In this document: in pieces, positions 3,246-38,128 of the stretch
Layout: each line of letters starts with the position of its first letter
How positions within the stretch are numbered: the first letter of the stretch is position 1
Source: Plectrocnemia conspersa
Taxonomy: Eukaryota; Arthropoda; Insecta; Trichoptera; Polycentropodidae
Reading direction: 5' to 3'
Length of the DNA: 64,000 nt
Assembly: GCA_009617715.1 (NCBI GenBank)
Contig: VTFK01000592.1
Span: 62,001 to 126,000 of the forward strand
The notes under the pieces: generated by a model
What the model saw: the letters and a program-made list of their open reading frames with translations, nothing else
Told to the model about the DNA's origin: nothing
Databases searched by the model: none
Position numbers and translations under genes: made by a program

Positions 3246-3285
3246 ATTCGTACGTTCGTATTGCAAAAAAATTGTATGATTATTT

Positions 3286-7975: not shown

Positions 7976-8012
7976 GCACACTTACCTGAAACAATAAAAA
8001 AAGCAAAAATAA
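7976..8012 (-). other. Candidate recursive splice site (ratchet point) 2
   Basis: On the minus strand a T-rich tract ends TTATTGTTTCAG and is followed at once by GTAAGTGTGC, so a 3' splice site and a near-consensus 5' splice site share one point (between 7986 and 7985). A zero-length exon of this form is the known signature of recursive splicing in long insect introns. A nearly identical 21-bp core recurs at 38.1 kb while the flanks differ. The strand agrees with the first-exon donor at 55042. No strong second donor was seen in the next 200 nt. Confidence 0.55.
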
Positions 8013-8376
8013 GTACATGTGCATAAATAGATACATAAAAAAATAATATAATTAAGAACATAAGTTAAAGTTAACCATAAAAAATCACTATAATTTTAAT
8101 CAGTTGCGGCTTATCTCGAAAGTAAAGTGCGTGTCAAAGTTGATAATTAACTCAAACCTTGTAATAATATATATTAACCATTATTTCATGTGCTATCGGC
8201 ATTATGAACCACTAGTGTTGTTTACTAAAAAAAAAAAAAAAAATTATTTAACCCTTCGAGAACAACACCACGACATATTATTGTCGGTTAAAGAAGTGAA
8301 AATTAATAAAATCTCTGAACCTTTAGAGTTTTTCACACATCATTCGATTTAGGCGGAATGAAATATACGTATGTAT

Positions 8377-8527
8377 TAGGCGCGTGCGGTGAGATACTTT
8401 TCCTTTTGTTCGCTCGTGTGTTGAGTGAGAGATAAGGGCATGCGGACCGCATGCTTCTTATCTCACTCACTCTAGTCACTTAGCACGCGAGCGAGCGAAA
8501 GGGAAAGCATCTCACCGCACGCGCCTG
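8377..8527. mobile_element. Palindromic hAT-like MITE, complete with 8-bp duplication
   Basis: This 151-bp element is one long imperfect hairpin. The left arm (AGGCGCGTGCGGTGAGATAC onward) is mirrored by the right arm, with the perfect palindrome GCATGCGGACCGCATGC at its centre. It is flanked by identical 8-mers GTATGTAT at 8369-8376 and 8528-8535, the duplication length typical of hAT elements, although the 8-mer is itself low complexity. Partial copies lie at 3196-3245 and 34995-35060. Confidence 0.75.
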
Positions 8528-8535
8528 GTATGTAT

Positions 8536-10369
8536 GTATATATTACAGCGAAATTATATTTTCCTTCGTATAAATATAATTTTACTGCAGCATATAAAAT
8601 CACTTGTACCTGAAATATTTTTTCACTAGTATAAATATATATCTACTGGTGAAAATGTATTTCGGTATGAGTTCACTGAAATTTAAATTTTTAAGATTCG
8701 GTTAGTAAGTTTTTATTAAATCTACATTGATTAATTCAGAGTAAACGTGACACCGGGAAACCACGATACCGCTTTGAAAGCTAACCTAATCGCATTATGG
8801 GCTACGGAACAATAAACAAAATCACACCGCGCAGACGAGCCGAAAGCGTGGAGACCCATGGCTGCCATTAGGCATTCGGAGACCTAGTGTAGGGTCAGGT
8901 GGGTGGTATGAAAGCCCTTCTCACTCAACCTTCACTAATGAATATGCATGAGGATCGATCATAAAAGAGCCGGCTTTCGCCAGAATCTCATTTGCATTCC
9001 GCGTAGCCCACGGGCCGGCGCGATTCCGGACAAATTGAGCCATACATCGACTGCAGCGTTGATTAAAATATATGTTTCTAGTTTAATACGGTGATCAATT
9101 TTTTTGTGGGTCTAAATAATATCATCGAAACGTAGACGGAAGAGGAAAAAAACGCATCATAGTTATTGGTATCGAACGGTAGATAATGAGAAAGCGGAAT
9201 GAGCGGCGGTCGATAAAGCGAACAGTTAAATTGTGGAAGCTGTTATAATATTGGGCGAGAATCAACGTAAAAAAAATATGATTAACAATTCAACGCATAA
9301 TACAATATGCAGTTGAATATTTATTATACTTAAGTGGACTACTATAAATCACCTTGTTTTCTACTAACTATTCAAATATTGAATGAAAAATTGAGTATTC
9401 GAATATTTTAATATATTCATAATTTTTTTTCGGTGTTTACCAATATTTATTTATTTAACCAATTGGTGTAAAAAATCAATTAATTGCTTGTAAAAAAATA
9501 TTTAATTAAAAAACAATTATTGGTTAATATTAATTTTTTTTTAATCGTTAATAGCTTTCATAATTGTAAAAACTTTTTGAATTTAATAAAATATGTACAA
9601 CACAATGCTGTGCCAATTACTGATCAAGGGAAATGTCAGTCAAAGGAAAATGCTTAATTTATTATTTAAGACACTTTTTGATCAGGGACATTGTTTCAGC
9701 TTTTTAAAATCACCAGAATTAAGATGAGCTGCAATTGAATTAATTCAGCAAAATAGATGGAACATTTCAAACACATTATATTATCGAATTTATTGTATAT
9801 TTATACAATAATGTTGGGAACGAATTTGATAAACACAAAGATTGGATCCGTATCGTAATTTATTTTGTGCGGATTTGCATATAAATAAAATAAATATCCG
9901 CGATCGAATTATTAAATGATATAAAATATCTGCGCTTGAAACAACAAATACAAAAATGCACTTCTATTTTTGAAATAAGCGTTAAACAATAATACAGGCT
10001 GAGCCTCACTAACATTTTGTTTCGTTCATCGTAGGAATTCTGCGAATTGCAGTCATAGTAGACACGGCCGATCAACATTGTTTTCATAATTTTTTTTTTG
10101 AAAGCGTAAAAGCATTTTTTTTTTGTTAAGAAGAAGCGTCTCATTGTCTCGCATTTGGAAGCAAAATAAAAGCGCGTAAAGTATCATGGATTTTAGAGCG
10201 TATATTGAGAGAAAAAACGACTACCCGTGTTGCTCAAATATACTAATTGTTTCATTCTACGGTTTTTAAAAATTTCATTCAAAATGATATAAACGAATTT
10301 TCGATTGAGAAACATAGACACGAGTCAGTCGCTCCACGTCAGTGCGCTCCAAACTATTATGTATGTTTT
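8536..10369. other. Non-coding stretch
   Basis: No gene was recognised. The part around 8740-9060 is more GC-balanced, but no open frame with splice signals was found. The part from 9280 to 9800 is very AT-rich. Confidence 0.4.
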
Positions 10370-10843
10370 TTATTCTAGTAGTACATTCTTAGAACAAGCA
10401 ACGTTATATAGAATATTCTTAGGACTTGCGTCGTGTTGCTCGATATATCTAAGTAGGTTAAATGTTTTGGAACAGAGAGCAATATAAACGAATAAATTTA
10501 ATATAAGGCGCCAAAACACACAGATTCGGAGATTTAGTCCGTCTATCAGATAACCAAATCCGCGCCGGAATCGAACACCATTTTCGCATTTGCGCAGAAT
10601 GTTTGCACTTTTGCTGTGTACACACAAAATTCTGGAAGGAGGGAATGGGCTGGCTGCTCGCCCGCCGCGTTGTGTACATTTTTTAAGAAGCCGCTTCCGA
10701 AATTGAATATCTTGGCGAGATAGATGAATTATGCATTCGGCAGGATTCCGCGATTCAATAGAAGAAAGAGGGTCTCTCGATAAAACAATATTTCTTGCGG
10801 AGTAGGAGGCATTTGAATAGTTAAACGCGCCCGCGGGAAGCAA
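10370..10843 (-). other. Unassigned 157-codon open frame
   Basis: This is the longest uninterrupted frame in the window and starts MLPAGAFNYSNASYS. It carries one hydrophobic stretch (FWRLILNLFVYIALC) and a basic middle part. It resembles no family I know, another frame is open over part of the same DNA (10458-10679), and no promoter or splice signal stands out. It may be chance in a locally GC-richer patch or an untranslated conserved region. Confidence 0.15.
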
Positions 10844-10879
10844 TTTGCAAACGCGTCGATTTTGGACTCTTCCCGCGGG
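10830..10879. repeat. Inverted repeat of CCCGCGGGAAG
   Basis: CCCGCGGGAAG at 10830-10840 is repeated inverted as CTTCCCGCGGG at 10869-10879, and each arm contains the self-complementary core CCCGCGGG. Such GC-rich symmetry is unusual in this AT-rich neighbourhood. Its function is unknown. Confidence 0.5.
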
Positions 10880-11315
10880 AAACGACCATGAAACCGGTCG
10901 GGGAAATTTAGAAAGAGAAAGGAAAAACCTTCGTAGGTAGATCGGGCAGATGAAGGAAAGAGGAAGAGAGAAACGTTTGATCCTTATTTTTTCAGGTATG
11001 TTCAGATTTTAACCCTGACCTTACGGATGGTACAAACTTCACTATAGGATTACATTCTTGAAAGTAAGAACAATTTTACGTATGTACATTGGTAGCCCTG
11101 GTTATTCTAACCAAACTAAATTTTAGAGGGATTTTATTAGCATATAGATCAATATACAAGAGAGAGTACGGGGTTCGAAGCACTTTTTCGGGTTGCTAAT
11201 GGTTGATACTGCGCACCGTTATTTTAATATTCAATGGTATAATTTATCATTTCGCGTGTATCTTTAATTATAATATGTATATTAAAGAGTCCGATGATGT
11301 ATTGTATTATATATA

Positions 11316-12560
11316 CAGTACTGTGCAAAAGTTTTGGGTCACCTTACACAACTATGCTTTAAAAACAATAAATAAAAAGATATATTTTATTAGTATTAAC
11401 TCATACATATATTTTACAACATAGAAAATTGAAAATAAATTTAAATAATAAATAAAATACATCTAAAAATAATATCGAGTATATCCACATTCTGCATGTA
11501 ATACGCACTTAATTCTTTCATGTATAGTTTCAAATAGATTTTATTGTTTCACTTCTAATTTTTTACCTTTCTGCTTTAAAAACGTTAAATAATTCATCTG
11601 GAGTGTTATAGCGCATTTTTTGACGTGCTAAGTGATCCCATAAATAGTTAATTATATTTAGATCAGGGTTTTGTGGGGACCAAAATAATGTTTTCGTTTG
11701 ATTTCTTGCTTCCAACTATTTTGGCAATATGTTTAGGGTCGTTTTCGTGCTAAAAATAGAAGTTCGCTGAAAAACAGCAAACGAAGTCCAGTTGGTTTTG
11801 CATGATTTTTAATAATTTGCGAATATCAGCATAACAATTTTTCTTAGATTTTAATTAAATCCTTGCTCCAAATGCCAAAAAACAACATCAAACTTGAACA
11901 GACCACCATATGTTAAAATGTTGGTTGTGAACAATAATCTGTTTGGCGTTATTCTGTCTTCTGTGGATCCCAAAAAGTTCGAATTTTGATTCATCGCACC
12001 ATAAAACACGCTGCCAATCTTCCAAAGTCCAATCTTAATATATACTTTTGCATAAATCAAACGCTATTGCATATTATTCTTCCGTAAAAGTGGCTTTCCA
12101 GCCGCCAAGTACCCTTTTAACCCCATTTTGAGCAATTGAATGAGCAAATGTAGTCCATTATACTGAGCGAAGATCTTCAGCCAGTTCTGAGAAAGATTTT
12201 TTCGATTTCTAAGGTTTGTTATTTTTAAATACATGGCTGCATTGGCAATGATATTTTTTGGCCTTATACAAATTAACTTGTTTCTGCAATTTTTTTGACA
12301 ATTTGATGCACTGCGTGTCCTGAAACTATGACACACTGGATGACTTATTCCTTCTTTATGGTGGGTTATAACATATGATTCATTTTTGGCAAAATGCTTT
12401 AATTTCGGCGATTAATAAATTATATTAAGCTCTCCACAGGTTGTTAAATAGACGAAGAACACAAATGAATTTTTATTTTTTAATAACAAGCAATTAAAAG
12501 TTTGGGGTCGGTCGGTCGTAAAATACATTTCCGAATAATTATAATTTAAATAACCTTACT
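11316..12560 (-). mobile_element. Tc1-like element, copy A (right side lost)
   Basis: TA followed by CAGTACTGTGCAAAAGTTTT at 11316 forms one end; the matching inverted end occurs twice at about 17 kb. Inside is a decayed Tc1 transposase on the minus strand. The string GCAATTAAAAGTTTGGGGTC at 12490-12509 recurs at 16660-16679, showing that copies A and B share the DNA preceding the transposase start. The right end of copy A is not beside it, so the boundary is approximate. Confidence 0.75.
11580..12420 (-). pseudogene. Tc1 transposase relic (DD34E type)
   Basis: All three catalytic motifs can still be read on the minus strand. VLWCDESKFELFG (about 11968-12006) contains the first aspartate. 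ENDPKHIAKIVGSKK (about 11705-11750) contains the second. Then WSPQNPDLNIINYLWDHLAR (about 11625-11685) carries the PDLN motif, but the usual glutamate of IEN(L/Y)W is replaced here (IINYLW). Frameshifts separate these pieces, and the N-terminal helix-turn-helix part (12064-12336) is degenerate. The gene is dead. Confidence 0.8.
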
Positions 12561-14413
12561 GGATATTAAAAAAAGCGAGACAATGTCAATAATAGATATA
12601 CATAAGTGATTTTAGAGACCAATAAAATGTCAATCATTATCAGTCAGTAGGTTATACAATGTGTTAAAACGATTGCTATTAATAATAAAGAAAGGCATTA
12701 AGGATGAATTTATAATACAATGATGGTATACTTCTATGTATGTATTATACATAAAATTGTTAACATGGTGTGCGATATTACATATGATTTCAATATTGAT
12801 TAAATTATATTTTTTTACTGACAATTATATAATCTCAAATTTCATTCACATGAAACATATTTATAATACAAAATAAAACACTGAACCATTCTGTATTGCA
12901 AATTCTATCAATAACATGATTCACCACCATCAGTGTTGCTTTAATACGACAAAAAAAGTATTCCGTGACCAAATTAATTTAGTTACACTGATACGTGCGA
13001 TAAGAAACAGAGCAATTTTAATTAAACAGCGGTTTTAACTCCGAACTACGAATTAACTTATATTGGATAGCCAAAAAACAGCACCATTCAAACTAAATTT
13101 CATCATAATAAAATACAGTTTTTATGAGCGTGATTTTGACAATTCAACTTTTAAAACATTGTTTATTGAAAGCTTTTTTTTGTATTGTAGTCACACTTGA
13201 TAAACTATTCGTTAGATCGTTATAGTAATGTGTGTCAACAAGAATATTAAATATTTGAAAATATAACAACACACTTTAACTGTGATGATTCACATACGAA
13301 GCAATCAAGTGGGCGTTTAACAGCACAACACAAAAATGCTCATTGTTCAAAATAAAAATTATTAGTTATCACATATGAATACATAATAACGATGAAATAA
13401 TACAGTACCGATGATGAGAGTCTAGAGAGAGAAAGAGCATCAATCAAAATCGCATCATTCTTCATTTTTCAGTTTATATGAATATAAGCGCAGTTAACGT
13501 AATGATTAGATACACGATATAGCATCGGCCGGCATTAATGCGAGATTAATTTGGCAGATGGAAAATAGAATTGTTCAGACAACCTTGACCCTTAAGTTTG
13601 GCTGAGATTTAGGGGTTAGAGATGCAATTAAAAGGTTTACGATAATCGGCCAGTGACAAAGCAGGATTAGAGCTAACGAATTCTGGTTTTAATTTATTTT
13701 GTGGGAGTTACATTGATTACTTTCAGTTTAATATATAAATTTAAATATAAATTAAAGCATTGGAAATATAATATACCAGGGCAATATGCGGTAATACCAC
13801 GATTTACCACCCCTTTTCACTGAACTATTTAATTATATCTTGCTACAACATAATAAACAAGATGGAGTAAAAGTTCCTAGTACAAATATAATTGTGTTCA
13901 TGATTTTGAAAACAGTGAATCAGTTTGTAAGGTGTTGTGACGGAGTGCCGTCAGATGTCGATACATCTAGTTTGAGCGTAATATTAATTTTAACTTATTT
14001 AACTTGACTTTATAATACATGTGATGATTTATTTGAGCAAAAATTAGATATATAAAATTGCCTCCACCCTACATTATTATTTTATTTTTACACGTATTAA
14101 TATAGTAACACCATCAGGATTTCCCTTCTGTCCACTAAGTTGAAAGCTCTAAAACTTGAATATCAAATCCTATACAGCAGACGGTAATGCCATCAAAGCA
14201 TCTCGCGTTAATAGCTTACAAAGGAGTTTCATACCATCACATATGCTATTATTACACACATACACATTGAAGTGTCATTGCCGTCAAACATCCAAAGTTT
14301 TGCCGCAGACTCCAAGATATTGCCAAGCCAAAAGACTTATCTCAAAACCCAAACCGCTCGAAGTGTCTCGATACGAACTTCCTGAGAGTCACGGATGACA
14401 ACCTCTCTAGAGC
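12561..14413. other. AT-rich stretch without recognised gene
   Basis: No coding frame or repeat boundary was recognised. This DNA separates the two Tc1 copies and may be part of a later insertion or ordinary unique sequence. Confidence 0.4.
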
Positions 14414-14417
14414 TTAA

Positions 14418-15137
14418 CCTGTTCAACGCCAAGCAAATTTCTATGAATTTGCTCTGTAGGCCACCATTTTCAACCCTTTAAATTATTATGAAAGAGAAAC
14501 ATTATTTACCTGGAAAATCTCTGTTTACTTTCCTTTTATTAATTTTAATTATAAAAGTGAAAAAAAGCACAGAAATAACAAGTTTTAAAAACCACTGTCA
14601 GGGCTGCCACACACAAATATTATATGTAATTTATATCGTATGTTATTTATATTATATGTTTTTGGTAGTTTTTAATATTTGTATGGGACACGATAATTTC
14701 CGTTGTTTTAATCAAAATCTTTTATCAAAATGGCAGCTACTTCATATATTTAAAAATTTTCAACTATGTCAAAAAAAATTTTTAAAAAATAGTAAATATG
14801 GCAATAATGTTATAATATAAAAAAAAAACAAAATTCAAATTCAAAAAAAATGTTATTTTTTTTACAAAACATTGTGTTTTTTTATCATTTAAAAAAAAAA
14901 TATTGTAGCAGCCCTAACAACGTCTGTATGCTCGATCGTAAATAATAAAAGAATGGTTCAAAATTGCACATTTTAACGATCACATTCCAATTAATAGATG
15001 TCTCTGTATTAAATTAACGAAAAAAAAATCGAATTTATTAATAAATGTGTCCGTAATAACATTTGCGTGCCTGCACGCGCTGGCACTTGACGGTCCGACC
15101 GCTTTGGCGTGCGGGCACGTCACTGGCGTCTAAAGGG
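14418..15137 (+). mobile_element. TTAA-target non-autonomous element, copy 1
   Basis: The 720-bp element is flanked by TTAA (14414-14417 and 15138-15141). Its imperfect ends read CCTGTTCAACGCCAAG at the left and CCCTTTAGACGCCAGTG inward from the right. Near the right end lies a hairpin whose arms are GTGCCTGCACGC-like strings. A 110-codon frame inside (14488-14820) is AT-rich, resembles no transposase and is best treated as chance. The nearly identical copy at 31065-31779 is inverted. TTAA duplication and the CCYTTT-type end suggest mobilisation by a piggyBac-like transposase. Confidence 0.8.
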
Positions 15138-15141
15138 TTAA

Positions 15142-15959
15142 CAATACAATGAAAAATTATCACGTGATTGTCTTTTTTTCATTAGTATTTTGACTACGGC
15201 GTAAACGCTTTTACGGGTCATAAAAAAAGGGCATGGTAGGTACCGAATTTAATCTGGATCGAAGGTTATTACATCAGTTATCGAGTGGGCGAAGATCGGG
15301 AAGTTTACGCGTGGGTTTTTACGCAGAATCTATGTATGTATGTATTAGCATAATTTAGAGAAGAGTTTTCCGACAGAAGCGCGATGAATTAAAAGCGGGT
15401 GAAGTGAAAATTGCTATTGCTTTCTGGCCTGTGCGAAAAATATGAATAATTCATTAAATCAAATTTAGTCCGCGTAGGCACTTCGCGAGTATACAATAAA
15501 TATTAACTCTTGCACTGCCATGTTGGCTTTAAAAATATTTCTAATTATTTTCAAATAAACTTGAATGGGCGAAATTAAACATGCACACTTAGAATATGAA
15601 CGATGCAAGTTACCGCAATCATTAAAAAATCGTAGGCTAAAATCACGATAAGAAATCAAACAACAATGTCCTTCTATCCCATAGTATAGTTTATACATAT
15701 ACTATTATTATCGAATTTATTAATTCAGTATATATCAAGCGACTATTTTGTTTCCGATAATTAAATACGTAAATATACAGCTATCCGTTAACCGGTTGAA
15801 TTCTTAATCTCTGAATAAAAATGGGTAGAGTTGGTAGACCTATTATAGTGCTAAGAAATTCTGATCCATCAAAAATGTACAATACAATGTGGTCTTGAAT
15901 GAAGGCAATACACATAAATGTGAGTAATACTGGGTTGATATTTTCACCTTATTTATATC
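15142..15959. other. Non-coding stretch
   Basis: No gene was recognised. The segment lies between the TTAA element and the mariner relic. Confidence 0.35.
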
Positions 15960-16160
15960 CTTAGAATATTTTTTTGCATTTGATGCGAAGTTGTCGAGGG
16001 ATGTTTTGATTCAAGAAATTGTGCATGGATCTGAATAGATAAAAATCAGACGATGCAAGGTATGGCGAATATTGTGTATACTTAATGACATCCCACTTTA
16101 ACTTCCTTAGTTTATGTTGGATCATCATAGACACACGTGGTTGCGAAATCTTGGTGAAAC
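15960..16160 (-). pseudogene. Mariner transposase C-terminal relic (DD34D type)
   Basis: On the minus strand one frame reads ISQPRVSMMIQHKLRKLKWD and then YSPYLASSDFYLFRSMHNFL. These match the mariner signatures N-A-R-P-H-V and YSPDLAPSDYHLF. The catalytic aspartate of SPDL is replaced by Y, and the HQDNARPH motif has lost its key residues. Only about 65 codons are recognisable, and no mariner termini were found beside them. Confidence 0.75.
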
Positions 16161-16289
16161 ACTAATCTTTTTCGGTTAGGCTCAATTTAGTTAGCTGTTA
16201 ATATATAATTCAGTTGTGATTGTTTTGATCAAATTTAGGTTTTAGTAGATAATAAATAAGTCCCATTATTTAAATAATAACTTGTGATT

Positions 16290-17031
16290 TTTTTCTAGAC
16301 ATTATTTTTATTACTTTCTGGATTGACAGTATTTTTTATTTTAAATTCAATTTTGACAATATGTTGCACTGCATGTCATGAAACTTTCGACTTTTTTTGC
16401 AATTTCTCGTTGACTTAATTATTTTTTATCATGGGTTATTATTTTGCATCTTTGAAATTTTGATATACTTCACATTTTTCTGCAAAAATGTACAAAAAAC
16501 ACACTAACAAATTTAACAAATTTAAAATACATACAAAAAAAACTTTTGTCAAAATATTTCGATTTTCTATAATTTGGATATAAATATAAGTGGTTTGGAA
16601 ACAGGACATATACACAACATAATTATTCTCAGGAAGAATTTTTATTTTTTAAAAACAAGCAATTAAAAGTTTGGGGTCGACCAGTTGTAAAACTTTCGAA
16701 GAAGTCTCACAACACAAAGAATTGCTGCTCTTATTTTTTAAACAGATATGTTGATTGTTCGACAACAAGAAAAAATCGTTCGGTAAGAAAAACCCGAGAT
16801 GCTATGATGTTATTATTTAAATAATGGGATTGGATCAGGTGGCACCAAAACTTTTGCACAGTACTGTATTTTTAAAAAATTAAAAAAAAACGTGTGCTCT
16901 GCTTGATTACTTCCATATTTTAAACGTATGTATTGATTGTTCGTCAACAAGAAAAAAATCGTTTCGAAATGATGCAATGTTATTAATGCTACTGGATCAT
17001 CAGGTGGCACCAAAACTTTTGCACAGTACTG
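16290..17031 (-). mobile_element. Tc1-like element, copy B, with duplicated terminus
   Basis: This piece carries the DNA upstream of a Tc1 transposase. It shares TTGCACTGCATGTCATGAAA-type sequence with about 12300-12330 of copy A, and the GCAATTAAAAGTTTGGGGTC string. The end that reads CAGTACTGTGCAAAAGTTTT on the minus strand occurs twice, at 16866 and 17031. The 165 bp before each are related (TTGATTGTTCG, CAACAAGAAAAAA, GGTGGCACCAAAAC), so the terminus was duplicated in tandem or a second copy landed beside the first. The transposase core is missing. Confidence 0.65.
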
Positions 17032-17095
17032 TATATACAAGTTTTTTTAATAGTAAACAATGATTTTTTCTATAAAAAACATTTAGGAATTTTCA

Positions 17096-17707
17096 CACAT
17101 ATAAAGCAAAATCATCTGGCATTCAACTATATCACTGGTCTTTAAAGGCAGCTGTAGTTGCAATTTCGTGGATCATATAATGATAAATCCCTATTTAAGA
17201 ATTTTAATAACCACATTTGGGAAATTCGAACTCAAGTTGCTTCACTGACGTACACAATAATTACGATTTTTAGTTGCTACGGTTGCATTATCCCTCAACC
17301 ATTTTCAGTAAAGTTTGGAACAAATTCTTTAAAATATATAGCTTTTAAAACATATAATGATTTACCAATATCAACCAGAAATAACTTTAAAGAAATAAGA
17401 AAATATTTTTTAAAAAATTCATCGAATTTAAAAAAAAAAAAAATGTGTGTATATGTTTATGTTTGTATATTTATATGTATATATGCATATGTATGAATGT
17501 ATGTATATGTGTATGTACATTCTTATAATTTGTTATACTTATTATTTTGATAAGAGTTTAAATATGTTTATTATACTTTCTAATGTATAAGTTTTTATTT
17601 TTCATATTTAACATAAAACTGTAATAAAATGTAACCGTAGAATGAGCAATTTTATACTCATGCGGAATTACGTTAATAAATAAATAAATAAAAATAAAAA
17701 AAAAATT
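17096..17707 (+). mobile_element. Non-LTR retrotransposon, 3' end
   Basis: The open frame at 17158-17445 has the look of the C-terminal tail that follows reverse transcriptase in Jockey/CR1-type LINEs: a segment on the pattern 'same sequence-Y-A-A-x-x-T-Y-N-D-L-P' (here YIAFKTYNDLPISTRNNFKE) and then IRKYFLKNS. It is followed by an AT-rich 3' UTR with TGTAACCGTAGAATGAGC and ends in a (TAAA)n/A-rich tail at about 17680-17707. The reverse transcriptase itself is absent, as expected of a strongly 5'-truncated copy. The clade is uncertain. Confidence 0.6.

Positions 17708-19333: not shown

Positions 19334-19339
<6 letters not shown>
17708..19339. other. Non-coding stretch
   Basis: The 18360-18660 and 19000-19330 parts are more GC-balanced, but no frame with splice signals or family resemblance was found. 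The 69-codon frame at 19119-19328 is considered chance. Confidence 0.4.

Positions 19340-19367
<28 letters not shown>
19340..19367. repeat. (ATT)n microsatellite
   Basis: About nine uninterrupted ATT units follow a T-run. It is simple sequence that is likely polymorphic in length. Confidence 0.9.
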
Positions 19368-26464: not shown

Positions 26465-26483
26465 ATAAAGCAATAAAAAATAG

Positions 26484-28499: not shown

Positions 28500-29053
28500 T
28501 AGGTTTTGCGCTGTGTTTCGCGTTATTCGCAAACAATCGCAGAAAAATCGCACCGAGACCTGGAAGGCGTCCAAAACGTGACCGGTCAGAATGAAAACAA
28601 CTCCAGGAATGAGTCTGGGCATCATCGTATGAGCTTTCTCGAGATTTTCTCCCAAACGCCGAGGACTTACGCTCTGGCAAGTGTCGTTGTCCTCTCTGAC
28701 TGCTTTCTTTATGAGCGGCATTGCTATTATGCTTTTGGAGGTCGCCAATGTTTACATGTGCCAGCTCGCCAGACGGACGCGATCTTTATTAATCTCTCGC
28801 ATAGCTGCTACTGTTGCCACTATACTATGCACGATTTGTATTATTATTTTTTCAACCATCCGAACGAACTCATTGTCTGACGCCATTCTTGGCACGAGAA
28901 AGCGCCGGAGTATTACGACTGGAGAAACTTGGTGGCTTTTTTAATGACGCCACCGTCGAGCGAAACCGTCCAAGTTTTTATGAACGTGTAGCCCTTAGCA
29001 ACGAGATTCAAATGACTTTACCGGAAAAATTACGGAGGAGATACAACGAGTAG
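28500..29053 (+). other. GC-richer island with several overlapping open frames
   Basis: Three plus-strand frames (28506-28880, 28633-28944, 28814-29053) and one minus-strand frame (28482-28748) are open here. The most protein-like is the second. After a stop at 28630-28632 it runs 104 codons to TAA at 28944, with two hydrophobic segments (TAFFMSGIAIMLLEVANVYM and ATVATILCTICIIIFSTI) separated by RRTR. It could be a decayed two-helix membrane protein with frameshifts, but no family, start codon or splice site is convincing, and the overlapping frames may simply reflect low stop-codon density. Confidence 0.2.
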
Positions 29054-29721
29054 ATTCTAAAGAAAAATATTCACGTCACACACAATGCGCTTCGCAAATT
29101 ACGAGCGAGATACAAGTTTCGCAGATGCGAGAATAAATTTGAGTTATTTAGTTGATAACGCGATACCTAATGAGCAATGTAAGTTTACTTTTTGAGACGC
29201 ACTCTACAACAGCATCAAGAGCTTCTGTAACTGAACACATTTTAACGAGCTTTTCTACCAAGTAAGAAAATTCTAAAGAAATTACATATTTAAAATTGTA
29301 GAATGTACCGAGTACATTCAAAAGAGTATTCGGCGAGATATGCTTCAATTTTTTACAGCCTCTATCTAACCTTGTGAAAAAAATATTTTCTCATAATGTT
29401 TTAGCTATAGAATCAGATGTCTCAGCGATTTTTCATAAAAGTAGAGAATGTTGTTAAAATTTTTCTATAAATTGAAAAAATATATTCAGCGTTTCTATAT
29501 CCAACTATGAAATATAAATAATCAATAATTCATTATGTATAAATAACCAATGCTGATATAAACGCCTGTAGAATAAGTAATAATAATTCTTGTTAGTGGT
29601 AAATTTGAGGTGCAAAAATTTTTTTTGTTGGAATACATTTAAGATCATATTTAAAATCAAACCATCGTGACAGGTTTTCCCAATCATCAAGATTGCTATT
29701 CTACAAACAATAATAATAAAA

Positions 29722-29775
29722 TTAAAATAAACAGTTATGGTACACCCAAAATAAACAGATATGGTACACCCAAAA
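29722..29775 (+). repeat. Tandem duplication of a 24-bp unit
   Basis: AAAATAAACAGTTATGGTAC plus ACCC is followed directly by AAAATAAACAGATATGGTAC plus ACCC and a third degenerate start. It lies just outside the foldback element. Confidence 0.8.
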
Positions 29776-29787
29776 TAGAAGTCATGG

Positions 29788-30432
29788 AAAATTTATCGCC
29801 CGCAATTCACCGCCAGCAGTTAATCGCTTGCAGTTTACCGCCGCGTCAGTTGATCGTATAAATAATTTATAGGCTACAAATGATCGCTAGCATATTTTAC
29901 CGTCTAGAAGCAATGAGATGTTTTTATATAAACTCACTCGCTTATTCCTTGGTTGATTAATTGATTTTAAATCAAGATGTATTTAAAGAGGTTATGCTGT
30001 TCTAAAATGTATATTAAACTCAATTAAAACCCAAATCAAACATAAATGAATTAATAATTAATTCTAATGGAAGTTCAAAAACATTTTCAAACTTTTACTA
30101 GGTTAGGTTTGGGTTTGAACAGCAAATATACGTTTCGCAACTGTTACAATGAACTTATATTTTCAATAGTATGAATATAGTTTCACTAAATATGTATCAG
30201 ACAATTGATTTATAATTCTACTGATCAATGAAACTGAATTTATTCACTGCCCGGATAGTAAAAATAACTCCTTACTTTCAATTTCATTTGACTAATAAAT
30301 TATACGCATTGTCTGGCGATAAAATATGCTAGCAATCATTTGTAAGCTATATATTGTGTATGCGATCAATTGACGCGGCGGTAAATTGCTGGCGATTAAT
30401 TTCTGGCGGTGAATTGCGGGCGATAATTTTTT
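29788..30432. mobile_element. Foldback element with arms of about 112 bp
   Basis: The left arm (29795-29906) starts ATCGCCCGCAATTCACCGCC and is mirrored by the right arm (30312-30424) at roughly 85-90% identity by eye. Each arm is built from alternating ATCGC and ACCGCC motifs about 18 bp apart, which suggests repeated binding sites. The A/T runs outside the arms prevent a sure target duplication. The 400-bp interior holds a copy of the CAGTTGCGAAACG repeat and no coding frame. The superfamily is not recognised. Confidence 0.75.
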
Positions 30433-31060
30433 AGGATCCTCGTAGGTATTGCAGATAAATTAGCACCGTCACAAATATTTTTTCCAGCTCCTCGTAGCTA
30501 TTGTGTTTGGCAAGCTCGATGAGAAGTTGGATGACTCGCGCAAGAGGAGCGTTTTTAAACGCTGGCGTTCTGGCCATTATTAGAGAATTTTTAATACCTA
30601 TTATGTACGACTTAGCTCTATTTTAATTAATCATTACGACATTGATCCATGCATCTGAAAATCTAAGTAAAATGGATGGGAATTATAATTATATAATAAT
30701 TACTAATTCCGATGAAAACCATAATGAAAAAATAAAATTTATATGAGATTTGAATCTGGCACTATCAGGTTAAATATAAAATAGTTATCGTAATAAAGCT
30801 ACTAAAAGACAATGCTATACCTTCCCTTTACGCGCGCCCCGGTGATGAATACTAAGTGTACATGTAAAAATGTGTGATAATCAACGATTGATAATTGGAA
30901 AAACACGAATATTATTACATCAAATTTAAAACGATGCAATAAGTCGTAACAATTATTGTAATATATATGGGTCGAAAGAGTAAATGCACTGGACATCGCA
31001 ATTATTCTATATAAATACATAAATTGAAAGTACCACTTACTTATTCACTCAAAATGATAT
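30433..31060. other. Non-coding stretch
   Basis: No gene was recognised. A T-rich part carries a short minus-strand frame (30802-31020) that is considered chance. Confidence 0.35.
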
Positions 31061-31064
31061 TTAA

Positions 31065-31779
31065 CCCTTTAGACGCCAGTGACGTGCCTGCACGCCAAAG
31101 CTGTCGGACCGTCAAACGCCAGCGCGTGCAGGCACGCAAATGTTATTACGGACACATTTATTAATAAATTTGATTTTTTTTTCGTTAATTTAATACAGAG
31201 ACATCTATTAAATGGAATGTGATCGTTAAAATGTGCAATTTTTGAACCATTCTTTTATTATTTACGATCGAGCATACAGACGTTGTTAGGGCTGCTACAA
31301 TGTTTTTTAAAATGATAAAAAAACACAATTTTTTGTAAAAAAAAAACATTTGTTGAATTTGAATTTTGTTTTTGTTTATATTATAACATTATTGCCATAT
31401 TTACTTTTTTTTTAATTTTTTTTTGACAAAGTTGAAATTTTTTAAATATATGAAGTAGCCGCCATTTTGATAAAAGATTTTGATTAAAACAACGGAAATT
31501 ATCGTGTCCCATACAAATATTAAAAACAACCAAAAACATATAATATAAACCACATACAATATAAATTACATATAATATTTGTGTGTGGCAGCCCTGACAG
31601 TGGTTTTTAAAACTTGTTATTTCTGTGCTTTTTTTTTCACTTTTATGGTAAAATTAATAAAAAGAAAAGTAAACAGTGATTTTCCAGTTAAATAATGTTC
31701 CTCTTTCATAATAATTTAAGGGGTTGAAAATGATGGCCTACAGAGCAAATTCATAGAAATTTGCTTGGCGTTGAACTGG
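31065..31779 (-). mobile_element. TTAA-target non-autonomous element, copy 2
   Basis: Flanked by TTAA at 31061-31064 and 31780-31783, this 715-bp copy is the inverted counterpart of 14418-15137. It begins CCCTTTAGACGCCAGTGACG and ends with CTTGGCGTTGAACTGG. The hairpin with GTGCCTGCACGC and GCGTGCAGGCAC is well preserved. The two copies differ by scattered substitutions and small A/T-run length changes. Confidence 0.8.
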
Positions 31780-31899
31780 TTAAGTATCAAGTTAAAAAAC
31801 TCTCATTATCTAATGGCATTTGCAAGTGTATCTCGGAGAATTAGCTAAATTTATATATGACATGTACACTCGGTGTACATAACAATAATCTTCAGTACA

Positions 31900-32545
31900 A
31901 AAACAGGATCGATTAATAAAACTAATGTCTATGATTCTATATTATATTATATTCAGCATAAAAATAATAGCGGTGTACCACAGGGTTATTAATTAGGGCC
32001 ATTATTGTTTATAATAAATATTAATGATGTAATTATTAATATCGAAAAAATTTACACTTTTATTTGTTGCATAAGTAATAATTTAAAAATGTGTGTATAT
32101 TAATTATAAAAATATGTATGATAGATAAAAAATTAAGGAGCATTGAAATAAAATAATCATTAAATTTATTAGAAAAATATGTTTATATATATAAAAAAAA
32201 AATCTACAATAGTATTATATTACACCACTTCAATTATTGCGCAGAGATAGTATATATGCATAAAAAATTAGATAAGACGATGTTGCAAAAATACAAAATA
32301 GGGCAATGAGATCAATTTCAGATACAAATAGATTTACTAGTTGTAGAAGTATGAATATTGAAGATGAAAGTGTAAGTATTTATATACAAGTATGTAATAA
32401 TAAATAAAGATGTAGATAAATTTAGTAATAGAGATAGATAGGTATAAGAAAACGAGTTCAGCCAGTTGAATATTGTACGGGGGTGTGAATTTGTATAATA
32501 ATATTCCTAGCACAATCTGGATTCCTAAATAGAATAAAGTGCATT
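31900..32545 (+). pseudogene. Non-LTR retrotransposon reverse-transcriptase relic
   Basis: A frame at about 31969-32040 reads SGVPQGY*LGPLLFIININD, the conserved block (SGVPQGS-x-LGPLLF-x-x-x-IND) preceding the catalytic YADD box. The YADD box itself is lost. Further on, KIQNRAMRSISDTNRFTSCR at about 32290-32350 matches the LQNRA-R block typical of the same group, followed by remnants of the C-terminal tail. Several stops and frameshifts are present. The motifs suggest a Jockey/CR1-type LINE, and the upstream endonuclease part is missing. Confidence 0.75.
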
Positions 32546-34807
32546 AATTAAATAAATTATAGTATTAGTATTTATATATTCTATTTATGTACGTTTTGAT
32601 CATATTTGTTTAATATCTCTATCATATGTAGGACAGATACTTTTGGGCCTACAATGTGTTTGTGTGAATAAAATATTAATTAACACGTTTAGATTATTAC
32701 GCGAAACGTGAATGTTATACAAACACATGCATGAAATATTTTAATTAAAACTTTATGTTTAATTACGTAAACACAGTATATTTACCAGTTAAATATTTTT
32801 TTGCATGATCATAAATTAAACGCGAATTTCGATCGATGCATAAATACATCACACCTGAAACACAGGCGAAATGTGGCACTTAATGCGTCAGATTAAATAT
32901 ATTTTTATTACACGCATCAAATAAATTACATTTTTTTATAGATCTTTCGCGTAGAGAAGATACGGTCTATGAATCTGGACGACGTTTGTGCGTAGTAAAT
33001 AGGTCGGGGATAAGTTTTTAGATCCTATGGTGAATTGCAAAATTCCTACATAAATCAAAAATAAACGAGAGTGAAATTAATTCTCTTCTGAAGATATTTA
33101 TCTAGAGAAAAATTACTACGTATGGGGCGGCGCGTTAATGCCTACACGAAGGGTCGATTTTACGTGAAAATAATCACGGCACGAACGAGATTTTTGTGTA
33201 TGGACGTGAACGTGATTCGAAACCGTGAAACCGGCCAGTGGTTGTTCACCTTTTCGTACGAAAAACAATTTATACGCTCACGAGCGCAGAACACATCACT
33301 ACTACTATACAATATAGCCTTATCGAAAATACGACCACGTATCGAGCACGTAAAAACGTACGCACGAATTATAAACAACAAAATACAATTGGGTAGCTTC
33401 GGCAATAACAAGATTGGTTAGATTTAGTTAGACTCGGACCTATGGTAGAACTTCTAGTGATTGAACGAGTTATTTTGACATATGGTCAAATTGAATGAAG
33501 CCGAACAAACGAGAAAACATGACACAGATAATAATAAGAAAAAACATAGCAAATTATATGTCATACAAGTAATCAAAAACTAATGGTAAATTTGGAATAA
33601 GATGTATACAGATTATTATTAACAAATAACTAACATTGTACTCCTTCTACAAAAAACCAGAAGAATAAATAGAGTTAGTATACATATATTAACCCAAGTT
33701 TTTTATGTTTATTACTCATATGATTATTTGAATATCACAAGAACCCTTTCGCACGAAACGATGTTTGTTGTATACATATATATTCTACTAACCATCTTTC
33801 AATGAAGAATTATTGTATAAAAAATCTATACAATTCTCAAATAATATAAAAAAAAACTTCTATGAAACGCCAATACCGGTTTAGAGAATGGAGTCCACGT
33901 CCGCATGCGTCAAAAAAGTGACCTTTATTCATTCCACACGAGCTTGGTCGGATTCATTCAGAAATCGAGATAGTTTGCATCTGCCGAATGTGGGTCAAGA
34001 CACAAAGGTTGTGCATATCAGAGTGCACCACTCTACAACTCCTCTGTTCTATCCGTGGGAAAACGATTAAATTGCGATTTTGACGCCGGAAGGATGAGGT
34101 GGAGCAGTACCGCCCCCTCGCCCGGCAAACATTAGTTCGGATCGAAGGACCGTGCCCGAACCTAATTAGAAGAGCCGGCGACCCGAAACTCCGCAATACG
34201 GAAAAACCCTTTTGGACCCTCGGAAGAGTCTGAATTCTAAATTCCGAGAGAACGCAACACATAAAAAAATATCTTAGAAAGCGAAAGTAGGGAGACAAAC
34301 ACGGCAGCGACGCGTGTAATAGTTATCTTATTATCATTACTGAATTATCCAAACTCTTCCCTTTGTATGCGGAAATTAATTAGTCAACCCCATATGTTGC
34401 TTTAATAAAACCGCAAAGCTGCGGCACTGAAATTATTTCGCTTCGTTTTGATAACGACACACACGAACTACCCTTAAAAGCGGCGAAAAGTTTGTAGCTC
34501 GCAATTAATTGCTAATTAGGCGGATTAGGGAGATTCGCCTATGTGTGATGAGTTCTTTGAAATAATGTGCAAGCGAAATAATGAATGCGAAGCTACTATT
34601 ATATATACTGTATATATATGTACATATCCACAACTCGAATCTGATACCTCTGTCAAGAGCATGAATGTTGTTTCAAAAATAAATGTAAATATCGCAGAAT
34701 TATTTTTATTAAAAAATTTCCACTATACTAATGAAATTTTATCACGAGCTCAGTCATTGATTATGATTGAACATTAAATAATTAAAACAAGTAGTGATAC
34801 TCTTATG
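32546..34807. other. Non-coding stretch with short open frames
   Basis: The frame at 33122-33421 (plus) and its antisense (33160-33411) overlap in a GC-balanced patch; neither resembles a known protein. The island at 33880-34300 likewise has opposing frames only. No transposon boundary was recognised. Confidence 0.35.
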
Positions 34808-35851
34808 CCTGCACTACACTCTCTGAAAGTTGGCCAAGGTTGGCCAAGGACGGAGAATATAGTGGGTTGCTTCGGTCGAGTTCGGTTCTGCCCGCTCTAA
34901 AATCTCTCGAAAGTTGTCCGAGGTTGGGGGTAATTCAGTCGACTTGGCCAGCTTCGAGCGCTTCCGAACATTGTCGGCAAACGGACCGAAGTCCGAAGCG
35001 GTGAGATACTTCCCCTTTCGCTCTCTCGCGTGTTAAGTGACGAGAGTAAGAGAGATAATGATATGGTGTTTCGCAAACTGAGATAGAACGAGTAACTCGG
35101 TTCAATTTCAGTATGCGCGTAGGAGTCCTATGGTTAACACGCACGTCGAGCGCTGCATCGTGGTCACGTGGTCAAGTTATAATACCACATGCTTATCGGG
35201 GACTTCAACAGACTCTTACTGACATCTTTGAATATTTTAGAGCACCAAAAGGGATTAATTATATTTTTGATAGTATATTCGTCTAACAGATATCGTTATT
35301 ATATTTTTTTTCATATAAAATTAAATAATTAAAAAATAATTAGTGGTACTTGATTTTGTTAAAAAAAATCGTTTCGAATATCCTTATGTATTTTCCTAGA
35401 CCGGCTTAAATAAATGTCACACCATAACGAATTCTTATTTAGAATTGATGGCGACAAATTCTAGGATAGTCACAGATGTGGTGTTCGTATTCTGAAGTAT
35501 TATTTTTATGCCTTATGGCATTTTGCAAAAGCCGACAAAGATTTTGCGTAAATTGAATATTTACGACCGAAAAGATTTACTGATATTGTATTGGTGAGTG
35601 CCCGCACAAACTTTTATAATTATCAGTAGCATAATTTTAACAAAATGACAATTTAAAAATTGCGATTATTTGGCACATTTTCCGATCGCGCGCAAATATG
35701 CCAGCTGTACGCGACAGAAGCCGCCGTCCGGACGTCACTCAAGGTCGCCGTCCGGACGGCATATGAAATTTGTGGCAGTGTGGTCGCTTACTCGAAGTCG
35801 TAGGTCTCGGCCGACTTCGGTTTGGACAACTTTCAGAAAGTGTAGTGCAGG
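34808..35851. mobile_element. DNA element with inverted ends CCTGCACTACACT
   Basis: The inverted ends (CCTGCACTACACTCTCTGAA at 34808 and its mirror ending at 35851) match over about 28 bp and bound 1044 bp. Subterminal motifs TTGGCCAAGG, repeated in tandem at the left, and CCGTCCGGACG, repeated at 35724-35760, add internal structure. No transposase frame exists, and an unambiguous target duplication was not found, so the superfamily stays open. A fragment of the 8377-type MITE lies inside at 34995-35060. Confidence 0.65.
34995..35060 (+). repeat. Partial copy of the palindromic hAT-like MITE
   Basis: AGCGGTGAGATACTTCCCCT and then CGCTCTCTCGCGTGTTAAGT follow one arm of 8377-8527. Only this arm is present, inside the larger TIR element. 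Confidence 0.65.
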
Positions 35852-36424
35852 TATTAGTCTATTAATTTTCAACACAGTACAAAAAACACAGCATAATCCT
35901 GTTAGCAAAAGTCGTTTTGTATTAGAATAATTATTTATTTTCCTCGGACAATTTATGAGATACCCAAATTCTTCAAATTATCACCTCTCCTTGTAAAGCT
36001 TTTGTGCTAGCTTTTGTATCGTTAATCTCGAACCTGCTTTGAAAGCAGCCCTAATATCCTCACTAACAACCCACTAAATACTACCGCCCTTTTATATTTA
36101 TTGTCAAAATTCTGGAACGAAATTTTTAGAATCACATTTGACACTTTTTAAATTGAATAGCATCCCTGCCCATTGCATTACATATGTTTTTAACTGCTAT
36201 TGTCGCATTATGACAGGATAGCTTTACCGAGATTATTTTATCTTCACTGCCATTGTTGATTTAGGGTTGAAAATACCGAAACAAAATAAATTCCGTCTCT
36301 AAATAGCATCATTGATACGACCACTGTTAATAACTACCGAAAGAATAATGAAATTATAATTAATTTAAATGTAAGAAAGATAGCGCGGTGACTAATTGGA
36401 CCTGATACATAAAAAACAAAAATC

Positions 36425-36535
36425 AATACTGCCCTGTGTACATACACATACCGGTTCCGTCAGAGCGACCGACTGATCATAGGGCAGAAATTTAAAAGGA
36501 CGTGATTATTACAAATAAATAGATTAAGTAATTTT
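36425..36535 (+). repeat. Three-copy dispersed repeat, copy 1
   Basis: CACATACCGGTTCCGTCAG, GCGACCGACTGATCATAGGG and CAGAAATTTAAA occur in the same order at 37036-37165 and 60563-60680. The consensus (ACCGACTAATCACAGGGC, then AATTCAAATCACG) has a faint tRNA-like layout, so an old SINE is possible. No full cloverleaf was found. Confidence 0.5.
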
Positions 36536-36847
36536 TATTACAATCAATGTAAAAATCTAAGAAATAAATTCATGGATTCAAGAGATGGTGCCATTCGTTG
36601 CACGTTAATTTAACGCAATTGATAAATTATCAAGAATTAATACAGCACTAAAAATGCAAGGATTGTAATAAACAAAACATATGTAATTATAACAATAGTA
36701 ATAAAATAATCTAGACAATTGTATTAATAACAACTTTTATGATCTGTATTTTAACCTCAATGTCGGTTTTATGTAAAGATGGTCAGTTTAATAATACATT
36801 GTTTTAGGGCCAAATAATCAACAAAAATATATTCAGCATTTAATATA

Positions 36848-36945
36848 ACAGTTGCGAAACGTCTATTTACTGTTTAAATCTAAATGAAAGTTCTAAAACT
36901 AATTATAGTTTTTGCATTGACATTAGATTAATTAGTTTTGTCAAA
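36848..36945 (+). repeat. CAGTTGCGAAACG repeat, one-sided copy
   Basis: ACAGTTGCGAAACGTCTATT is followed by the interior seen at 23770-23830 (AAAGTTCTAAAACTAATTAT). The mirrored right end is missing. Confidence 0.6.
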
Positions 36946-37035
36946 ATTTAAAAGAAATATTGACCAAACATAATATTAAACCATTAAACTATTTAAATAA
37001 TGACCAATTAAATATAATTCATTGTACATTAAGGC

Positions 37036-37165
37036 AATGTTGCTCTGTGTACTAACACATATCGGTACCACCCCTCAGGGCAACCGACTAATCACAGGGC
37101 ATAAATTCAAATCACGTGTTGAACAATGTGCGCACTGGATGTTGAAAATAAACAGACTAAGTAGC
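37036..37165 (+). repeat. Three-copy dispersed repeat, copy 2
   Basis: This is the best-preserved member: ACACATATCGGTACCACCCC, then GGGCAACCGACTAATCACAG and AATTCAAATCACG. The 73-codon frame at 37022-37243 runs across it but is not shared by the other copies, so it is not considered a gene. Confidence 0.5.
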
Positions 37166-37959
37166 TACATCGAATGGTTTAAAAACGAGCATATTTTGTG
37201 CCAGTTTATGAAAAATCTTGATTTAAGAGAGTGTCAGTCGTAGCATAAACAAGTTGATTAAAAACAGAACAAACTAAGCCTGAATGTTTGTAGCCCTATT
37301 ACGGTGTAGCGATTAGTATTTTCGCTTCAAGCTGTTTCAATTCTAAATCGATAGTAAATCGATTGATAAATAGATGAATAGTTACTCATATATTATTTTC
37401 TTTTTATATTTTAAAATAGGCCAGGATGATTCAAGTCTTAAGTATTTGTGAGCTATTATTATAATTCGATTGTAAAATTAACCATAGGCACGATGTTGGC
37501 AAGTAATAAATTACTAAGCGAAGTACAAAGGAGAGCCATTGGCATTCTCAATTTAACTGTGACAGTAGAAATTAATACGTAACTGTCACTAAGTGCTAGT
37601 AATCAATTTAGATTATTTAAATACATATCAATTTGATGAACGCTAGTTTATTTACATCCGCTAATCCGGAGTGAAGTTTCTCGGAAATTCAACCACGGTT
37701 TATGCAAACTAGCACATATGCACATATGTAATAAACACAGTTATCATGCATGCGAGCAATCGGAGAGGTCGCAATTGTATGACAAACTCGCAAGACAAAC
37801 AATTTCGATCGACGATGACATCACACTTTTAAAATGGTGCAAGGTCGATAGCAGAGGGTGACGTTTGAAAATAAAACTCGCAAAAAGAGGGTGAATCGGG
37901 GAAGAAGCGTCTGACGCGACCTACCCCACGCCGAAGGTTTTAAACGATAGTGTACTTAC

Positions 37960-38101
37960 GGTGGAGGAAGTCTAGGAGCGACATTTCAGTGGAAGGGAGA
38001 AGGAATTCGGATCGCGTGTCGGATAAAAAAACTCAGCCTTGAGGCGATTTCTTCAGGAAAATGGAGAGCAGCGGCATAGTTTGTGGCGTAGAAACACTTA
38101 C
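37960..38101 (-). other. Possible exon beginning at ratchet site 1
   Basis: On the minus strand the segment starts at the acceptor half of the ratchet site (TTCAG|GTAAGTG) and ends at a second good donor, CTCCACC|GTAAGTAC (donor GT at 37958-37959), giving 142 nt. The DNA is clearly richer in GC than its surroundings. An ATG at 37984 in the context GAAATG opens MSLLDFLH before the donor, leaving phase 1. It could be a recursive-splicing exon, an alternative first or untranslated exon, or a chance pair of splice sites. Nothing in the peptide is recognisable. Confidence 0.35.
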
Positions 38102-38128
38102 CTGAAACAATAAAAGAAAAACATGCTA
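38094..38128 (-). other. Candidate recursive splice site (ratchet point) 1
   Basis: The minus strand reads TTATTGTTTCAG|GTAAGTG with a long pyrimidine-rich run upstream (TTTTTCTTTT). The juncture lies between 38102 and 38101, so removing the upstream intron part would regenerate a near-consensus 5' splice site. The core matches the site at 7986 over 21 bp, but the flanks are unrelated, which argues against a shared repeat. It lies 16.9 kb downstream of the first-exon donor at 55042. Confidence 0.6.

What the first reader, a model, noticed from the sequence alone, without database searches (positions are those of the whole stretch)
7976..38128. Two near-identical zero-length-exon (recursive splicing) sites in a giant minus-strand intron
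At 7985/7986 and 38101/38102 the minus strand reads a pyrimidine tract, TTCAG, then GTAAGTG with no exon between. The core (TTATTGTTTCAG|GTAAGTG) is shared while the flanks differ. CTTACCTG, the plus-strand image of CAG|GTAAG, was seen only at these two places in the window. Both sit on the strand of the first-exon donor at 55042 and split the intron into parts of tens of kb, as ratchet points do in long Drosophila introns.
Basis: partly seen in the sequence, partly recalled or inferred. Interest (0 to 1): 0.75.

Follow-up and report, generated by a model that had tools for sequence, protein, structure and literature searches.

The report
Recursive splice sites in insect Rbfox1
A giant intron of the Rbfox1 RNA-binding-protein gene in a caddisfly-like insect carries what look like recursive splice sites, which would let the cell remove the intron in several steps, as fruit flies are known to do with many of their longest introns.

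Summary
On the minus strand, at 38102|38101 (RP2) and 7986|7985 (RP1), a pyrimidine tract ends in CAG and GTAAGTG follows at once; 22 nt are shared. The 19-mer core occurs only at these two places in the 393-Mb genome. The gene is Rbfox1: the exon ending at 55043 matches exon 1 of caddisfly "RNA-binding Fox protein 1". The next coding exon, a 48-nt microexon, lies outside the window at C620:35318-35271. Intron 1 is thus 81.7 kb, cut by the sites into 16.9, 30.1 and 34.7 kb. A motif scan of the whole 207-kb contig ranks them second and third; first is an unreported third site, same strand, at C620:30842. Random sequence would give about 0.01 such sites in 117 kb. RP1 and about 180 nt after it have a 77%-identical copy on contig C27, most alike at the splice motif. 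Best reading: ordinary Drosophila-type ratchet points in a new gene and lineage. No RNA and no other species' DNA was available, so use by the spliceosome is inferred. New member of a known kind.

The parts
55043..55162 (-). Rbfox1 first coding exon (from ATG at 55162; an in-frame ATG also lies at 55273): MTSPQLQGGGLFLCANSPDTATKLWGSGAFFLPPQGMYYP, ends in phase 0
   Evidence: 92% identical over 39 aa to Arctopsyche grandis RNA-binding Fox protein 1 isoforms P0021/P0022; one match in own genome
55037..55042 (-). 5' splice site of exon 1, CCT|GTGAGT
   Evidence: sequence; 8.4 bits with a recalled donor matrix; P0023, P0027 and P0029 join MYYP directly to HMVQTG, which places the junction here
1..55042 (-). 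part of Rbfox1 intron 1 lying in the window; the whole intron is C620:117042-35319 = 81,724 nt, ending 26.7 kb beyond the window's left edge at microexon 2 (C620:35318-35271)
   Evidence: local tblastn and splice-site reading
38096..38121 (-). recursive splice site RP2: tract TTTTTCTTTTATTGTTTCAG (38121-38102) then GTAAGT (38101-38096)
   Evidence: second of all sites on the 207-kb contig, 20.0 bits
37960..38101 (-). candidate cryptic RS-exon of RP2, 142 nt, donor acc|GTAAGT at 37959 (6.5 bits); alternative 177 nt with donor ggg|GTAGGT (9.6 bits). Both carry an in-frame stop if joined to exon 1
   Evidence: weaker than the RP donor (13.6 bits)
7980..8005 (-). recursive splice site RP1: tract TGCTTTTTTTATTGTTTCAG (8005-7986) then GTAAGT (7985-7980)
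   Evidence: third of all sites on the contig, 19.3 bits
7804..8040 (-). RP1 with flanks, duplicated at C27:569636-569858(+), 77% identical; 23/25 identical just before and 23/25 and 22/25 in the first 50 nt after the splice point
7816..7985 (-). weak candidate RS-exon of RP1, 170 nt, donor agg|GTGAAA (4.8 bits), frame-shifting; another weak donor, ttt|GTGAGT (5.1 bits), lies at +338

Best explanation
The two sites are ratchet points (recursive splice sites) of the Drosophila type in the 81.7-kb first coding intron of Rbfox1 in a caddisfly-like insect. Proposed order: exon 1 is spliced to RP2 soon after RP2 is transcribed, which recreates a strong donor (GTAAGTG) directly behind exon 1. That donor is spliced to RP1, and RP1's donor to the 48-nt microexon 2 or, if it is skipped, on to RP3 at C620:30842 and then exon 3. 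No nucleotide of the sites stays in the mRNA. Shown: the sites, their strand, strength and uniqueness, the gene and both ends of the intron, and the duplicated RP1. Inferred: that the spliceosome uses them, the order, and the transient RS-exon.
For: Exact juxtaposed acceptor and donor at both places; the 19-mer is found nowhere else in 393 Mb. Gene and intron ends identified. On both strands of C620 the three best AG|GT sites are all sense-strand sites in this gene (21.4, 20.0, 19.3 bits); the best other site is antisense with 16.8 bits. Expected number of sites this strong in 117 kb: 0.007-0.015, seen 3. In 110 kb of C27 and C411, both strands, the only site above 17 bits is the C27 copy of RP1; four others reach 15-16. 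RP1 is kept with an intact AG|GTAAGT in a 77%-identical copy on C27, identity peaking around the splice point. None of the three sites lies in a stretch of C620 that matched the held pieces of C27 and C411 at E 1e-4, save that copy (C620 was not compared with itself). The RP donor (13.6 bits) is stronger than any downstream donor within 400 nt (at most 9.6), as the competition model of PMC8605326 asks. Of 9 proteins returned, 7 run from exon 1 into the next coding segment, and none carries a peptide like those after the three sites.
Against: No RNA data. No DNA of another species could be compared, so conservation across species is untested. RP1 and RP3 have only weak downstream donors (best 5.1 and 4.8 bits), though fly RPs are said to need an RS-exon; at RP2 the +177 donor (9.6 bits) is stronger than exon 1's own (8.4). 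Two of the 7 related proteins (P0025, P0028) carry a 15-aa insert after MYYP that begins with VS, which is what an included exon starting GTAAGT would encode, though read-through of exon 1's own GTGAGT donor gives VS too. The splice matrices are recalled approximations, not trained on this insect. Two of the three sites were chosen before the statistics. The C27 copy lies in a locus that I could not identify. A genome-wide count of such motifs did not complete.
Confidence: 0.81

Rival explanations
1. Expressed RS-exons: the sites are 5' ends of alternatively included cassette exons that also carry a regenerating donor, like Ubx microexons, so they do add sequence to some mRNAs.
For: RP2 has donors 142 and 177 nt downstream, RP3 one at 51 nt in an open frame. 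After the AG, RP1 is open for 57 codons and its C27 copy for 24, with similar peptides over the first 18 (VSVLKKFANRFYDSPTLS and VSLLKKFAHRFYDSPTLS), and the C27 copy has a 66-nt in-frame exon with donor acc|GTGAGT. P0025 and P0028 of other insects have an insert VSNGNVIDTGTPTLL between exon 1 and HMVGTG that could be such an exon or an extended exon 1; P0007 (Chilo suppressalis) runs on past it, which favours an extended exon 1.
Against: RP2 exons carry an in-frame stop; the RP1 candidate of 170 nt shifts the frame. No homologue of the RP1 frame among 5.8 billion proteins, under a filter that wants three shared 5-residue words. The five other proteins that run on from exon 1 have no VS-insert.
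Confidence: 0.12
2. Chance: strong-looking AG|GT sites in a T-rich strand, without function.
For: The sense strand is T-rich (0.355); at 0.06-0.13 per Mb per strand a genome of 393 Mb must hold tens of such sites by chance. An antisense site reaches 16.8 bits.
Against: Three in one 117-kb stretch, all sense, none antisense above 16.8 bits, about 0.01 expected; RP1 kept in a diverged copy.
Confidence: 0.05
3. Relics of a dispersed repeat that happens to carry a splice-like motif.
For: RP1 has a 237-nt partner on C27 and a weaker 84-nt match on C411; five more places match the first 38 nt of the query, about 375 nt upstream of RP1. C620 shares 82 matching stretches with 40 kb of C27 and 96 with 70 kb of C411, so repeats are common.
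Against: The 19-mer exists only twice in the genome and the flanks of RP1 and RP2 are unrelated; of the 7 places besides itself that the RP1 query found, one overlaps RP1 over more than 100 nt. RP2 and RP3 could not be searched genome-wide (no answer, last tried).
Confidence: 0.05

Closest known systems
Intronic ratchet points of Drosophila long introns (Ubx, kuz, Bx, Ten-m and others; PMC8605326, PMC6110457)
   Same: Juxtaposed acceptor and donor around AG|GT with a strong tract and GTAAGT; sense strand of introns of tens of kb; several per intron.
   Different: Different insect lineage (caddisfly-like by its closest named exon-1 matches), gene Rbfox1; no RNA proof; weak RS-exon donors at RP1 and RP3.
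Predicted RP-sites in long introns of mosquito, bee and beetle (PMC2773006)
   Same: Computational prediction, enriched on the sense strand (ratio >>10 in mosquito, 4.0 in bee, 8.0 in beetle, 21.7 in fly, from the passages seen).
   Different: Here single sites with gene, intron ends, a genome-wide uniqueness test and a duplicated copy; the passages I saw give rates and do not name this gene.
Ubx microexons m1 and m2, re-spliced RS-exons (described in PMC8605326)
   Same: The donor is recreated at the exon's first nucleotides.
   Different: Ubx exons are included in some mRNAs; inclusion here is neither shown nor excluded, and RP2's candidate exons would bring a stop codon.

Membership tests
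Drosophila-type intronic ratchet point | 3' splice site immediately followed by a 5' splice site (AG|GTAAGT) with a strong pyrimidine tract | tested here: met
Drosophila-type intronic ratchet point | lies within a very long intron, on the sense strand | tested here: met
   81.7-kb intron of Rbfox1 with both ends located
Drosophila-type intronic ratchet point | stronger and commoner on the sense than on the complementary strand | tested here: met
   3 sense to 0 antisense at 17 bits or more over all 207 kb; 3 to 1 at 15 bits
Drosophila-type intronic ratchet point | cryptic RS-exon with its own downstream donor | tested here: inconclusive
   RP2 yes (6.5 and 9.6 bits); RP1 and RP3 at most 5.1 and 4.8 bits
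Drosophila-type intronic ratchet point | RP donor stronger than the RS-exon donor | tested here: met
   13.6 bits against at most 9.6 within 400 nt, recalled matrix
Drosophila-type intronic ratchet point | conserved splice motif between species | not testable with these tools
   no insect genomes held; only a duplicated copy of RP1 within the same genome
Drosophila-type intronic ratchet point | splicing intermediates, lariats or sawtooth in nascent RNA | not testable with these tools
   no RNA reads available
Rbfox1 (insect A2bp1) gene | conserved first coding exon ...KLWGSGAFFLPPQGMYYP | tested here: met
   the exact 18-mer is in 18 of the 20 proteins
Rbfox1 (insect A2bp1) gene | following segment homologous to caddisfly Rbfox1, RGLRVDEILKQQEFM | tested here: met
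   14 of 15 identical (E 0.002, P0022), clean splice sites on both sides, C620:35318-35271
Rbfox1 (insect A2bp1) gene | single RRM domain | tested here: inconclusive
   present in P0022; on C620 no RRM exon was found, so it would lie beyond the contig end, and the genome-wide search for it did not complete

The most novel reading that the evidence does not exclude
RP1 and its roughly 180-nt downstream stretch form a self-contained recursive-splicing cassette that exists in two places in the genome and is kept by selection in both (AG|GTAAGT intact, identity peaking around the splice point). RP2, sharing 22 nt with RP1, would be a further trace of such copying. Together with RP3 these sites hand exon 1 stepwise to a 48-nt microexon of a splicing regulator, so that recursion would set whether the microexon is included.
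Probability: 0.18. Interest if true: 0.6.

Novelty: new member of a known kind. Interest (0 to 1): 0.42.

Why it matters
The RNA proof of ratchet points in insects that I saw is from Drosophila; for other insects I saw only rate estimates for mosquito, bee and beetle (PMC2773006, passages). A well-bounded case in a caddisfly-like genome, in a gene that itself controls splicing, gives three exact sites to test for use and conservation, and a natural duplicate (RP1 and C27) to ask what part of a recursive site is under selection.

Tried and rejected
Coding ORFs near the sites: nine ORFs of 100 aa or more in the window; none of the nine gave a Pfam match above a curated cut-off, one had a sub-threshold FBD hit; no tRNA. 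An early by-eye pass for the next exon on C620 failed; tblastn with the caddisfly protein found it. The idea that the frame after RP1 is a known coding exon was dropped: no homologue, with the caveat that the filter needs three shared 5-residue words. RBFOX binding motif UGCAUG: 15 sense against 30 antisense in 117 kb, no enrichment; the nearest are 352 nt after RP2, 264 nt before microexon 2 and 143 nt before RP3. The C411 match to RP1 (TTTTTTTATTGTTTCAG|GTATGT; three such sites at 220196, 254366 and 283394) was set aside: two are a 95%-identical duplication and the third keeps about 100 nt; these may be plain acceptors of duplicated genes. C411 also has a CAG|GTAAGT on its minus strand at 276810 without a good tract. 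A first guess that the genome is hymenopteran was dropped once the exon matched caddisfly Rbfox1.

For the VS-insert I lowered the best explanation from 0.83 to 0.81 and raised the expressed-exon rival from 0.10 to 0.12.

Not done because the genome search did not complete (3 of 12 searches were answered): genome-wide count of YYYYYYYYYYNCAGGTAAGT, genome copies of RP2 and of RP3, place of exon 3 and the RRM exons. The identity of the C27 locus also stays open.
Full report
What is there. On the minus strand of the window a pyrimidine tract ending in CAG is followed directly by GTAAGTG at 38102|38101 (RP2) and 7986|7985 (RP1). The two sites share 22 nt, TTTTATTGTTTCAGGTAAGTGT; the flanks beyond are unrelated to the eye. 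CAGGTAAG is found at these two places only in the window.

Which gene. The window is bases 62001-126000 of a 207,259-base contig, C620. The exon whose donor is at 55042 encodes MTSPQLQGGGLFLCANSPDTATKLWGSGAFFLPPQGMYYP. Two searches returned 20 and 9 proteins at E up to 1. The best hits of the second are RNA-binding Fox protein 1 isoforms of the caddisfly Arctopsyche grandis, a trichopteran, identical at 92% over 39 aa. Of the 20 proteins, 18 hold the exact string KLWGSGAFFLPPQGMYYP; they are mostly unnamed contigs, with one Chilo suppressalis and one Sergentomyia squamirostris record. In its own genome the exon gave one match. The species is therefore probably a caddisfly or a near relative; its name is not known to me.

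Where the intron ends. tblastn of 8 related proteins on the whole contig gives, besides exon 1, one further match below E 0.1: ARGLRVDDILKQQEFM at C620:35318-35271, minus strand, E 0.002. It is a 48-nt microexon between tttttcccgtag and gtaagt, matching RGLRVDEILKQQEFM of P0022 at 14 of 15 residues. Intron 1 is then C620:117042-35319, 81,724 nt. RP2 and RP1 split it into 16.9, 30.1 and 34.7 kb. In three related proteins exon 1 runs straight to HMVQTG, skipping this microexon (P0023, P0027, P0029); in that form the intron is longer than 117 kb. No exon HMVQTG was found on C620.

Unbiased ranking and a third site. I scored every position of both strands of the 207-kb contig with an acceptor-plus-donor matrix (recalled insect frequencies, 26 positions). 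The top three sites are all on the sense strand of this gene: C620:30842 (21.4 bits, tttgtttcctctttacag|GTAAGTGG, outside the window), RP2 (20.0) and RP1 (19.3). The next is antisense with 16.8 bits (window 10995), and the next sense site in the gene has 13.4. As a control, 40 kb of C27 and 70 kb of C411 hold, on both strands together, one site above 17 bits (the C27 copy of RP1, 19.2) and four of 15.2 to 16.0. In 195 Mb each of Markov sequence of order 1, 3 and 5 trained on the sense strand, sites of 19.25 bits or more occur at 0.128, 0.062 and 0.128 per Mb. That is 0.015, 0.007 and 0.015 expected in 117 kb; three are seen, Poisson P 6e-7, 6e-8 and 6e-7. It lies 4.4 kb into the intron after the microexon.

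A duplicated copy of RP1. An 801-nt query around RP1 finds itself and 7 other places. One is substantial: C27:569636-569858(+), 77% identical over 237 nt. Five match only the query's first 38 nt, about 375 nt upstream of RP1, and one is the short C411 match. In 25-nt bins the C27 identity is 18/25 and 23/25 before the splice point; 23/25, 22/25, 18/25, 22/25, 13/25, 20/25 and 16/25 after it; and 8/25 to 20/25 in the bins further out. AG|GTAAGT is intact there. The 40 kb of C27 that I held show no Rbfox1 exon by tblastn. The host gene of that copy is unknown. The C411 match belongs to a duplicated locus and was set aside.

RS-exon test. PMC8605326 (I read the abstract, introduction and Figure 1 legend) states that fly RPs need a cryptic downstream exon, about 50 nt but variable, and proposes that its donor loses to the RP donor. 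All three sites have the same strong RP donor (13.6 bits). Downstream donors within 400 nt: RP2 at +142 (acc|GTAAGT, 6.5 bits) and +177 (ggg|GTAGGT, 9.6); RP1 at +170 (4.8) and +338 (5.1); RP3 at +51 (4.8); weaker ones are. For scale, exon 1's donor scores 8.4 and the microexon's 10.5. So the competition rule is met, but a good RS-exon donor exists only at RP2. RP2's candidate exons have an in-frame stop, the 170-nt RP1 candidate shifts the frame, and the 51-nt RP3 candidate is open and in frame.

What relatives' proteins say. Of the 9 proteins, 7 continue past exon 1 into the next coding segment; the other two (P0024, P0026) look like genomic read-through. None of the 7 has a peptide like those after RP1, RP2 or RP3. 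But two, P0025 and P0028, have VSNGNVIDTGTPTLL between exon 1 and HMVGTG. VS is what both GTAAGT and exon 1's GTGAGT encode in this phase, so the insert may be an extended exon 1 or an included RS-exon. P0007 of Chilo reads MYYPVSNGNVIDTGTPTLL and then runs on, which favours the former. These are other species, so all of this is only suggestive.

Known background. PMC6110457 (passages and part 1 of the Results) reports 539 candidate sites in 379 fly introns, 98 introns with several. PMC2773006 (passages) reports sense-strand enrichment of such sites in long introns of fly (21.7), mosquito (>>10), beetle (8.0) and bee (4.0). Duff 2015 is not held, so I could not see whether fly A2bp1/Rbfox1 is on its list; A2bp1 and Rbfox do not occur in the main text of PMC6110457, and its tables were not read. 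Searches for recursive splicing with Rbfox1 and with A2bp1 gave 7 and 2 papers; I opened two of them, passages only, and these passages do not speak of recursive sites in the Rbfox1 gene. Recursive splicing with Trichoptera gave 0 papers, with Lepidoptera 1, a piRNA review that I did not open. Broader listings were looked at as listings only, three of them capped. That is a statement about these searches of an open-access library only.

Verdict. It is a new member of a known kind. Use by the spliceosome remains inferred.

Noticed in passing
G000 C620:30842 (minus), about 31 kb left of the window: Third and strongest recursive-type site of the contig, acag|GTAAGTGG, 4.4 kb past microexon 2; TACTAAT, which resembles a branch point (recalled motif), lies upstream.
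   Followed up: partly
C27:569636-569858 (+): Diverged copy of RP1 with intact AG|GTAAGT and a possible 66-nt in-frame exon ending acc|GTGAGT; host gene unknown.
   Followed up: partly
C411:220196, 254366, 283394 (+): Three TTTTTATTGTTTCAG|GTATGTATTC sites 29-34 kb apart; two are a 95% duplicate, and the third keeps only about 100 nt around the splice point.
   Followed up: partly
P0025, P0028 and P0007 (relatives): In these records exon 1 is followed by VSNGNVIDTGTPTLL, and in P0025 and P0028 then by HMVGTG: either a second, downstream donor of Rbfox1 exon 1 in moths, or an included exon that begins like a recursive donor.
   Followed up: no
window 10995 (plus strand): Best antisense recursive-like site, ttattttttcag|GTATGT, 16.8 bits; probably chance.
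   Followed up: no
C620:17125-19055 (plus): Run of ORFs that look like a decayed hAT-type transposase (label recalled, not tested); fragments that look like reverse transcriptase (also recalled) on C27 and C411.
   Followed up: no
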